Shown here: positions 51,425 to 54,274 of the stretch, piece by piece
How positions within the stretch are numbered: position 1 is the first letter of the stretch
Layout: each line of letters starts with the position of its first letter
Assembly (NCBI RefSeq): GCF_000703085.1
Contig: NZ_JNLL01000001.1
Location: 992,001-1,056,000 of the forward strand
Length of the DNA stretch: 64,000 nucleotides
Direction of reading: 5' to 3'
From: Persephonella sp. KM09-Lau-8
GTDB lineage: Bacteria > Aquificota > Aquificia > Aquificales > Hydrogenothermaceae
Translations under genes and position numbers: made by a program
Notes under the pieces: generated by a model
The model's input: only the letters and a program-made list of their open reading frames with translations
What the model was told of the DNA's origin: nothing
Databases searched by the model: none

Positions 51425-53416
51425 ATGGCAAAAAGTCCTTTTAGTATAAAACTACCCTTTGAACCTGCTGGAGACCAGCCCAAAGCAATAAAACAGCTTT
51501 ACGATAACCTGAAACACGGAGTAAAAGAACAGGTTCTACTGGGAGCTACTGGTACCGGTAAAACAATAACATTTGCCTCGGTTATAGAAAAATACGGTAA
51601 GCCTACCCTTGTTTTGACACATAACAAAACCCTTGCTGCACAGCTTTACAGAGAGTTAAAAGAGCTATTTCCTGATAATGCTGTTGAGTATTTTGTTTCT
51701 TATTACGATTACTATCAGCCAGAAGCTTATGTTCCTGAAAAAGACCTTTATATAGAAAAGGATAGTTCTATTAATGATGCAATAGACAGGCTCAGGCACT
51801 CTGCAACTAAAAGCCTTATAGAAAGACCTGATACTATTGTTGTTGCCTCTGTTTCATGTATATACGGACTGGGAACACCTGAGTTTTATGAGAAGCTAAG
51901 GCTTCAACTGTATGTTGGTCAACAGATAGACAGACAGGAGCTTTTGAAAAAACTTGTTGAGCTTCAGTATCTTAGAGATGATTTTTCATTTAAAAGGGGG
52001 ACCTTCAGGGTTAAAGGAGATACCGTTGAGATTATTCCTTCCCACGCAGAAGACAGGATAATCAGAGTTGAGTTTTTCGGAGATGAGATAGACAACATAA
52101 CAGAGATAGACCTTTTTAACAGGGATATAAAACAAAAGCTAAACACTACAGTTATTTTTCCGGCAAGCCACTATGTTATCCCAAGACCAGATATGGTAGA
52201 AGCCATAAAACAGATACAGATAGATTTGGAAAAAGAGGTTGAGGAGTTTAGAAGACAGGGAAAAGAGATAGAGGCCAACAGACTTTGGCAGAGAACAAAC
52301 TATGATATTGAGATGATGCTTGAGCTTGGCACATGCAAAGGAATAGAAAACTACTCAAGATATTTTGATGGTAGAAAGCCAGGAGAAGCACCTTATACAC
52401 TAATGGATTACTTCCCAGATGATTATCTCCTTATTATTGATGAGTCACATGTTACTATTCCACAGGTCAGGGCTATGTATAACGGGGACAGGAGAAGAAA
52501 GGAAAACCTCGTTAAATATGGCTGGAGAATGAAATCTGCCTATGATAACAGACCACTGAAATTTGAGGAGTTTTTACAAAAAATAGAAAGGGCTATTTAT
52601 GTATCAGCAACACCTGCAGACTGGGAGATAGAAAGAAGCAAAGGTGTAATAGTAGAGCAGATTATCAGACCAACAGGGCTTCTTGACCCTGAAATAGAAG
52701 TCAGACCGACAGAAGGACAGATAGATGACCTTATAAATGAGATATGGAATATAAAAGAAAGGGGAGAAAGGGCTATTGTTATTACCCTTACAAAGAAAAT
52801 GGCTGAAAATCTTGCAGACTATCTGGAAGAAAGGGATATAAAAGCTATTTATCTACACTCTGAAATAGACACAATAGAAAGGGCAAAAATCATAAAAGAG
52901 CTGAGAGAAGGGAAATATGACGTTATAGTTGGAGTTAACCTTCTTAGAGAAGGGATTGATATGCCTGAGGTTTCTCTGGTTGCTGTTTTAGATGCAGATA
53001 AACAAGGATTTTTAAGGTCTACAACAGCACTTATCCAGATAATAGGAAGGGCAGCAAGAAATGTCCATGGAAAAGCCATTTTATATGCTGACAAGATTAC
53101 CCCAGCAATGGAAAAAGCTATAGAAGAAACAAATAGAAGAAGAAAGATACAGCAGGAATACAATGAAAAATACGGTATAACTCCAAAATCTATTAAGAAA
53201 GAAATAAAAGAGCTTATATCCCTTGAAGAAATTGGTATTTACGAATATGCTGAGTATATTCCTGAAGATGTTGAAACAGAAGAAGACCTTATGAAAAAGA
53301 TAGAAGAGCTTGAAAAACAGATGTGGAAAGCAGCAGAAAACTGGGAGTTTGAAAAGGCAGCAGAACTCAGAGACCAGATAGAAAAACTAAGAAAATTAGT
53401 TGGTGTGGTTAAGTAA
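51425..53416 (+). CDS. uvrB: Excinuclease ABC subunit B
   Basis: 663 residues. UvrB of nucleotide excision repair with Walker [11 protein letters not shown] (38-47) and the damage-probing beta-hairpin [12 protein letters not shown]. Helicase motifs include [11 protein letters not shown] and the motif [11 protein letters not shown], and the C-terminal UVR domain (about 625-660) binds UvrC/UvrA. Length and motifs are complete. GAGAGGAAG precedes the ATG. Nothing else is on this strand until 53976. Confidence 0.97.
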
Positions 53417-53460: not shown

Positions 53461-53832
53461 TTAAATAGTTGTTGGCTCCTTTTTAGCCGTATTTTTAAAC
53501 TGTAGAAGTTTCTGGAATAACTTAGTTGATATATCCTTAATTTTTTCTAGCTGTTTTTCTTTTTCTTTACTTTCTAAAATATTTTTAGAAATATTATGAA
53601 ATTCACAATGAAGGTCATAAATCTCTTTAAACAAAGTTTTCAGATTCTCTGGTAAATTTTCCATACATTCATCTTTTATGAGATCTATTGCCTTTCCAAA
53701 TGCACAGGAATGGCAGTCTGTTGGTTTGAATTCCAATTTTCCTTCTATTGCTTTTTCAAGTCTGTTTATATAAATTGCATGCTGAGATATATAAATATCT
53801 ATATCTTCAGCAAGCTCATTTATTTTTTTCAC
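53461..53832 (-). CDS. Stand-alone CZB (chemoreceptor zinc-binding) domain protein
   Basis: 123 residues, all helical. H18, C43 (in CAFGKAI), H75 and H79 (DLHCEFHN) reproduce the three-His/one-Cys zinc site of the CZB domain. CZB normally sits at the C-terminus of chemoreceptors or diguanylate cyclases and senses zinc or hypochlorite. Here it is free-standing, with an extra C40 next to the ligand cysteine. GTG start with GGAGGG five bases upstream. Downstream and convergent is uvrB; upstream is the sigma-28 promoter of a small membrane protein, which links it to motility by position. Confidence 0.8.
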   Translation of the reverse strand: MKKINELAEDIDIYISQHAIYINRLEKAIEGKLEFKPTDCHSCAFGKAIDLIKDECMENLPENLKTLFKEIYDLHCEFHNISKNILESKEKEKQLEKIKDISTKLFQKLLQFKNTAKKEPTTI

Positions 53833-53917
53833 AATTACCCTCCTATATATTTTTATATTTTTTATATTTAATAATAAGAAAATAACTATAAACTTTTATG
53901 GAATAAATCATATTACC

Positions 53918-53944
53918 TAAAGTTTAACTGTGAAAAACCGATAA
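53918..53944 (+). promoter_or_regulatory. sigma-28 promoter of a 44-residue gene
   Basis: TAAAGTTT at 53918-53925, with TAAA and exactly 15 bases before ACCGATAA (53937-53944). The -35 is a full match and the -10 seven of eight. Expected +1 is near 53951, 25 bases before the ATG at 53976. Confidence 0.75.
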
Positions 53945-53975
53945 ATTACTATAAATAAAAGCTAAGAGAAAAAAG

Positions 53976-54110
53976 ATGTTTACCGAAAGCAAAACAGAAC
54001 TTATGATATGGTTGTTCTTATTTATTACGCTGATTACTATTTTTTTACTGGATAATACTTTCTCTTCTCAATTGGAAACTCCACAGGTAAGTATCACAAT
54101 AAATTTTTAG
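53976..54110 (+). CDS. Small single-pass membrane protein (44 aa) under a sigma-28 promoter
   Basis: Forty-four residues: a polar start (MFTESKTEL), one hydrophobic helix (about 10-25, MIWLFLFITLITIFLL) and a short polar tail ending QVSITINF. A modest AAGAGA lies before the ATG. Coding status rests mainly on the near-perfect sigma-28 promoter, correctly spaced upstream; the leader contains no other start. I know no family for it. Position beside a CZB protein and the promoter class suggest a motility-linked membrane peptide. It converges with the 55-residue gene, overlapping by four bases. Confidence 0.55.
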   Translation: MFTESKTELMIWLFLFITLITIFLLDNTFSSQLETPQVSITINF

Positions 54111-54274
54111 GCATAAATATCTATTTTATGATTCCCTTCTTTTTTAGGATTTTCAATTTTTTTCTTTTCTGTTCTCTTTTTGGATTTTCTATAAACTGTC
54201 CACAGTCTTTTCTGAGATTTTTCATCCGTTACAGGTTTTATTCGTAAGACATTTGTAATATCTGGCCAATCCAT
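54107..54274 (-). CDS. Small basic protein (55 aa), unknown
   Basis: The minus strand encodes 55 residues from ATG at 54274, with an excellent ribosome site GGAGGT seven bases upstream. The start is MDWPDITNVLRIKPVTDEKS. The second half is very basic (RKSKKRTEKKKIENPKKEG), suggesting nucleic-acid or acidic-surface binding and disorder. No family is recognised. It is divergent from the porin gene and shares that intergenic region, including the 54348 operator. Confidence 0.55.
   Translation of the reverse strand: MDWPDITNVLRIKPVTDEKSQKRLWTVYRKSKKRTEKKKIENPKKEGNHKIDIYA

What the first reader, a model, noticed from the sequence alone, without database searches (positions are those of the whole stretch)
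53918..54110. Unannotated 44-residue membrane peptide under a near-perfect flagellar promoter
TAAAGTTT ... ACCGATAA with exact 15-bp TAAA-to-CCGATAA spacing lies 31 bp before a 44-codon frame with one clear transmembrane helix. The promoter match is as good as those of flagellin, flgK and flgL in the same window. The neighbour on the other strand is a CZB zinc-sensing protein. This looks like an undescribed small member of the flagellar late regulon.
Basis: partly seen in the sequence, partly recalled or inferred. Interest (0 to 1): 0.75.

Follow-up and report, generated by a model that had tools for sequence, protein, structure and literature searches.

The report
Conserved small membrane protein under flagellar promoter
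A short membrane protein that no family library knows is switched on, judging by its promoter, together with the flagellum in heat-loving Persephonella bacteria; its sequence and its promoter are both preserved across species, so it is very probably a real but still uncharacterised motility-linked gene.

Summary
TAAA-N16-CCGATAA at 53918-53944 ties with the flagellin and flgL sites as best sigma-28 match in the 64-kb window; the flgK site is weaker. The ATG of a 44-codon frame with one membrane helix follows 31 bp later. Eight of the 14 genomes held for its genus encode a homologue. The frame is under purifying selection (dN/dS 0.13 for G000/G024; 0 of 7 changes alter the protein in G025/G022). 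All eight carry an exact TAAA-N16-CCGATAA site 31-35 bp before the ATG, while the spacer between the boxes is no more alike than chance. A ninth, syntenic copy lies in another genus (G016); its kinship rests on position, not sequence score. No Pfam, NCBIfam, PHROG or Rfam family matches. The CZB neighbour accompanies only 4 of 9 copies. Best reading: a real, lineage-restricted late-flagellar gene for a bitopic inner-membrane peptide, probably an accessory subunit of a motility membrane complex. Gene and promoter conservation are shown; transcription, membrane insertion and function are inferred.

The parts
53918..53944 (+). sigma-28 (FliA) type promoter, TAAA-N16-CCGATAA
   Evidence: Exact match; tied best site of the window; exact in all 8 same-genus homologues with N16 and in G016 with N15, 31-35 bp before the ATG; spacer identity 0.36 against 0.34 expected.
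53976..54110 (+). 44-aa single-membrane-helix protein, new small family (E8, D26 and C-terminal P-x-[VI]-x-[IL]-x-[IV]-N-F conserved in the same genus)
   Evidence: Frame conserved in 8 of 14 same-genus genomes; dN/dS 0.13 for G000/G024; KD19 2.35 at 7-25; no informative family match.
54107..54274 (-). Convergent 55-aa basic small frame ('RIKP.TDEK' family, uncharacterised), stop codon overlaps that of the 44-aa gene; context, probably not part of the unit
   Evidence: Relatives at E <= 1e-3 in 21 of 41 family genomes; tail-to-tail overlap read in G000 and G016.
53461..53832 (-). Stand-alone CZB (chemoreceptor zinc-binding) protein, divergent neighbour; context only
   Evidence: PF13682 7e-10; beside the small gene in 4 of 9 members.
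51425..53416 (+). uvrB, upstream neighbour used as synteny anchor
   Evidence: Pfam UvrB domains; upstream in members except G018, and in G016.

Best explanation
A real protein-coding gene, transcribed on its own by RNA polymerase with FliA (sigma-28) late in flagellar assembly, so that it is made together with flagellin, FlgK and FlgL. Its product is a bitopic inner-membrane peptide of 44-51 residues: a short N-terminus inside, one helix framed (in the same genus) by a conserved Glu and a conserved Asp, and a tail of about 18 residues outside ending in an alternating hydrophobic stretch and Asn-Phe. It most likely works as many peptides of this size do, by packing its helix and docking its tail against a larger membrane complex of the motility apparatus; the MotA/MotB stators are my first candidate, chemoreceptors or the export gate next. 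Shown: frame conservation, purifying selection, promoter conservation. Inferred: transcription by FliA, membrane insertion and its direction, partner and function.
For: Homologues found by protein search alone in 8 of 14 same-genus genomes, each then seen to have an exact TAAA-N16-CCGATAA site 31-35 bp before its ATG. dN/dS 0.13 (G000/G024), 0 (G025/G022), 0.09 (G023/G017, only 4 changes), 0.27 (G023/G029); neutral reshuffling of the 27 changes of G000/G024 never gave as few amino-acid changes without a stop (0 of 5000). Spacer at chance identity while both boxes are invariant. G016, of another genus, has site + membrane frame + the same convergent partner after uvrB. The same exact motif precedes flagellin and flgL in 7 of 7 genomes scanned. 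FliA above cut-off and a flagellin-family match in all 9 carriers. Shine-Dalgarno match of 4-7 bases in 7 of 9. Hydrophobic segment KD19 2.35-2.81 in 8 of 8 distinct proteins.
Against: No expression data. G000 itself and G024 show no Shine-Dalgarno match of 4 bases or more. G028 (complete, flagellin and FliA present) lacks the gene beside uvrB and by profile search, so it is not a core flagellar part. Charge balance is weak: N-terminal K+R exceed C-terminal K+R in 5 of 8 proteins, tie in 1, are fewer in 2. AlphaFold gives the tail no strand (pLDDT 62 and 57 for the last two blocks). Nothing ties it to a particular partner.
Confidence: 0.55

Rival explanations
1. A real sigma-28 dependent membrane protein whose job is not in the flagellar motor but in something switched together with swimming: surface attachment, type IV pili, chemosensing or second-messenger control.
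For: The same exact motif precedes a PilM-type pilus gene in 4 of 7 genomes (Pfam run on the G000 copy only) and a 231-261 aa protein without Pfam match in 4 of 7, so the regulon may be wider than the flagellum. Patchy distribution suits an accessory role.
Against: No pilus or signalling gene is conserved beside it; the CZB neighbour is present in 4 of 9 only.
Confidence: 0.3
2. The transcript acts as an RNA, for instance antisense to the convergent small gene and the MFS transporter gene beyond it; the reading frame is secondary.
For: Stops of the two convergent genes overlap and no intrinsic terminator-like site was found between them, so the transcripts may overlap; sigma-28 dependent regulatory RNAs are known in E. 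coli and Campylobacter (PMC10578931: start of abstract in the listing and one passage; PMC4626219: listing only).
Against: Codon-pattern substitutions and low dN/dS; no Rfam match; length differs (44, 46, 47, 51 codons) with the frame kept.
Confidence: 0.08
3. A membrane-active toxin peptide of the type I kind, or another small toxic peptide.
For: Size and one hydrophobic helix only.
Against: Flagellar-type promoter conserved in all 9; conserved tail after the helix; the convergent partner is a protein-coding frame that occurs without the peptide in other genera.
Confidence: 0.04
4. Chance: a random open frame behind a random motif.
For: The exact motif (N13-17) is not enriched genome-wide over its reversed control in G000, 21 against 44; over six relatives with N15-16 it is 49 against 38.
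Against: Conservation of frame and motif in 8 of 8 homologues found without using the motif.
Confidence: 0.01

Closest known systems
FliA (sigma-28) dependent late flagellar genes (flagellin, flgK, flgL)
   Same: Promoter boxes, spacing and distance to the start codon; kept in all carriers.
   Different: Product is a 44-aa membrane peptide, lineage-restricted, alone in its unit; dependence on FliA not measured.
FliL (stator-associated single-span protein)
   Same: One span, short inner N-terminus; FliL alleles that keep the N-terminus plus span without the outer domain lose or slow motility (PMC10127578, abstract and part 1 of its Observation section read).
   Different: No periplasmic domain, no Pfam match to FliL; a full FliL exists apart in 7 of 7 genomes tested.
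Small bitopic accessory peptides such as MgrB, AcrZ, KdpF, CydX (recalled)
   Same: Around 50 residues or fewer, one span; bind a larger membrane protein (recalled).
   Different: No informative match in Pfam or NCBIfam; partner unknown.
SwrD of Bacillus, a small protein raising motor power (recalled; search listing only)
   Same: Small motility accessory.
   Different: No relation tested or claimed.

Membership tests
sigma-28 (FliA) regulon | TAAA and CCGATAA boxes at the right spacing upstream of the gene | tested here: met
   conserved in 9 of 9 carriers.
sigma-28 (FliA) regulon | A FliA sigma factor in the same genome | tested here: met
   TIGR02479 over cut-off in G000 (C1:1552680-1553348) and in all 9 carriers.
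sigma-28 (FliA) regulon | Transcription lost without FliA | not testable with these tools
   Needs RNA data or in vitro transcription.
FliL | FliL domain (PF03748) | tested here: not met
   No Pfam FliL match for any of 8 members; FliL is encoded elsewhere in 7 of 7 genomes.
MotB | MotB plug region (PF13677) | tested here: not met
   No match for any of 8 members; two MotB genes lie elsewhere in 7 of 7 genomes.
Bitopic small membrane proteins | One hydrophobic span, about 50 residues or fewer | tested here: met
   KD19 2.35-2.81 in 8 of 8 distinct proteins, 44-51 aa; AlphaFold helix 2-34.
Bitopic small membrane proteins | Inserted in the inner membrane, N-terminus inside | tested here: inconclusive
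   Charge bias favours N-inside in 5 of 8, ties in 1, opposes in 2; insertion itself not tested.
CZB-linked signalling unit | CZB gene conserved beside the small gene | tested here: not met
   4 of 9 members.

The most novel reading that the evidence does not exclude
The founding member of a family of sigma-28 controlled stator modulators: a FliL-like span without FliL's outer domain, made only once the filament grows, that sets the output of the MotA motor with two MotB proteins found in Persephonella, through its conserved membrane-edge Glu and Asp and its outer tail.
Probability: 0.15. Interest if true: 0.65.

Novelty: new member of a known kind. Interest (0 to 1): 0.45.

Why it matters
It suggests that the late flagellar regulon of a deep-branching thermophile holds a conserved protein too small for the family libraries searched, and it gives an immediately testable candidate for a lineage-specific motor or motility accessory. 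The combination used here (short frame plus conserved FliA site) could be run over other flagellated phyla to find more such peptides.

Tried and rejected
CZB partnership: rejected, 4 of 9 only. Distant relatives: a profile of 8 members over 136 genomes of the phylum gave 67 genomes with a match at E <= 1, but below the 9 members the best were 3.3e-4 and weaker; of the 11 weaker loci I opened, none had a small gene behind a motif on its own strand; G039 near flgL looked tempting but the matching frame lies antisense to a longer one. The other weak rows were not opened. In one search a G011 match (E 0.0017) was dropped because it lies in a 279-aa open frame.

G016 kinship by sequence: a profile without G016 does not score it above block-shuffled versions of itself (960 of 2000 shuffles reach it), so the 2.0e-15 is circular and is not used. 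Its inclusion rests on synteny and anatomy.

In one search I first read two minus-strand loci (L013, L015) in the wrong orientation; one search corrected this. Genera g2, g3, g4 and others: regions after uvrB (23 loci scanned, 10 of them printed) or before the convergent gene (21 loci given; its pattern found the convergent gene in only 7, so the other 14 were not scanned) held no such frame beyond G000 and G016; in g2 (G003, G004) a different gene follows a weaker TATA-type site after uvrB.

Solved structures: one designed membrane peptide at E 0.024, uninformative. Plasmids: no match. Literature: the searches listed nothing that I recognised as this gene or as a Persephonella flagellar regulon; the library is limited to open PMC papers, and only PMC10127578 (abstract, part of one section), PMC11955535 and PMC10578931 (passages) were opened. 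Fold search was not run: one helix would match anything.

Full report
What is there. At 53918-53944 the + strand reads TAAA-N16-CCGATAA, and 31 bp after it an ATG opens a 44-codon frame ending at 54110. A simple consensus score over both strands of the window ranks this site level with those of flgL and flagellin, and above that of flgK (genes named by Pfam). One such motif is not strong evidence alone: with N13-17 it occurs 21 times in G000 against 44 for the motif read backwards, and with N15-16 it occurs 49 times against 38 in six relatives together.

Is the frame a gene. A search with the protein alone over 41 genomes of the family found homologues ending at the same residue in eight genomes of the same genus, own genome included: G000, G017, G018, G022, G023, G024, G025, G029, 8 of 14. 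Of the six without it, five are 70-86% complete; G028 is complete and lacks it beside uvrB and by profile. Substitutions follow the codon pattern: dN/dS 0.13 for G000/G024 (27 changes, 9 amino-acid differences; 0 of 5000 neutral reshuffles were as conservative without a stop), 0 of 7 changes non-synonymous for G025/G022 (0 of 5000), 0.27 and 0.29 for G029 against G023 and G017. For those last two pairs 132 and 111 of 5000 reshuffles were as conservative, for G023/G017 (4 changes) 577 were, and for G025 against G000 and G024, where synonymous sites are saturated, 1 each. The clearest pairs carry the argument and the others agree.

Is the promoter real. The eight homologues were found without reference to the motif. 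All eight have it exactly, with N16, 31-35 bp before the ATG. Among six distinct N16 sequences the spacer has mean identity 0.36, where composition alone gives 0.34, while all 11 box positions are invariant. FliA is encoded above cut-off in all nine carriers, and each has a flagellin-family match (for G025 only a weaker, flgL-like one). In the seven genomes scanned for the exact motif (G000, G016, G017, G018, G022, G024, G028), flagellin and flgL carry it in 7 of 7, the small gene in 6 of 6 that have the gene, a PilM-type gene in 4 of 7 and a protein without Pfam match in 4 of 7. Of the 21 G000 sites only the first 8 came as loci, so the G000 tally beyond the window is partial.

A ninth copy. 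In G016, of another genus, the same place after uvrB holds an exact site (N15), a 51-aa frame with one membrane helix ending in INLP, and the same convergent small gene. A profile built without it does not single it out from block-shuffled copies (960 of 2000 reach its score). I count it by synteny and anatomy. Its contig length suggests Persephonella marina (recalled). One homologue, in a named record whose contig length equals that of G023:C2, is titled Persephonella sp. (L173).

Anatomy. The helix has KD19 2.35-2.81 in all 8 distinct proteins; AlphaFold2 from the single sequence gives helix 2-34 with mean pLDDT 97 for residues 11-20 and a loose tail. Same-genus members share a Glu at the start of the helix and an Asp at its end (offset or replaced in G016) and a tail P-x-[VI]-x-[IL]-x-[IV]-N-F. 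Charges lean towards N-terminus inside (5 of 8, 1 tie, 2 against). No Pfam, NCBIfam, PHROG or Rfam match was informative.

Surroundings. The CZB neighbour stands beside 4 of the 9 copies and similar stand-alone CZB genes occur in genomes without the small gene. The convergent gene on the - strand, 54107-54274, overlaps the stop codon, is conserved more widely (21 of 41 at E <= 1e-3), and has no known family. No terminator-like site was found. FliL (7 of 7) and two MotB genes (7 of 7) exist apart from the small gene in the genomes checked, G028 included, so the peptide does not replace either.

Mechanism. What is shown ends with a conserved small protein behind a conserved FliA-type site. From size, one span, conserved edge carboxylates and conserved outer tail I infer an accessory subunit of a motility membrane complex, with the stator as first guess. 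FliL alleles that keep the inner N-terminus and the span without the outer domain lose or slow motility (PMC10127578, abstract and part of one section read); that makes a short spanning peptide a plausible motor modulator, but it is an analogy and not membership. A role in pili, attachment or sensing switched on with swimming is the main rival, as the motif also precedes a PilM-type gene in four genomes.

Verdict. Observation confirmed, interpretation supported with corrections: narrower distribution, CZB neighbour not linked, no core flagellar role. Interest 0.45.

Noticed in passing
54107-54274 (-): Convergent 55-aa basic protein ('RIKP.TDEK..RLW ... DIY') with relatives in 21 of 41 family genomes at E <= 1e-3, no informative Pfam or NCBIfam family; a second uncharacterised small family.
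   Followed up: partly
L001:1501-1527 (G000:C1:92408-92434): A strongly conserved sigma-28-like site TAAAGCCTTCCCTTTTT..CCGATAA lies 39-60 bp before a PilM-type gene in G000, G017, G022 and G024: type IV pilus assembly may be under flagellar sigma control here.
   Followed up: partly
L004:1501-1527 (G000:C1:381047-381073, -): Exact sigma-28-like site 33 bp before a 231-261 aa protein without Pfam match, found in G000, G022, G024, G028.
   Followed up: no
L085 and L077, after uvrB: In genus g2 (G003, G004) a different, secreted-looking protein follows uvrB behind a weaker CCGATA site; G005 has a relative of the protein.
   Followed up: no
L107, L108, L103: Another small single-span frame (MKWIIILMFLLYFATMIFLIY...) shared by G027, G028 and G021.
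   Followed up: no
L233 (G000) and equivalents: PilZ-like gene and motA (names recalled) followed by two tandem MotB genes in the loci read; two MotB matches in 7 of 7 genomes.
   Followed up: no
53907-53934 (-): A sigma-70-like match that could serve the CZB gene overlaps the sigma-28 site on the other strand; such matches are common by chance in this region.
   Followed up: no
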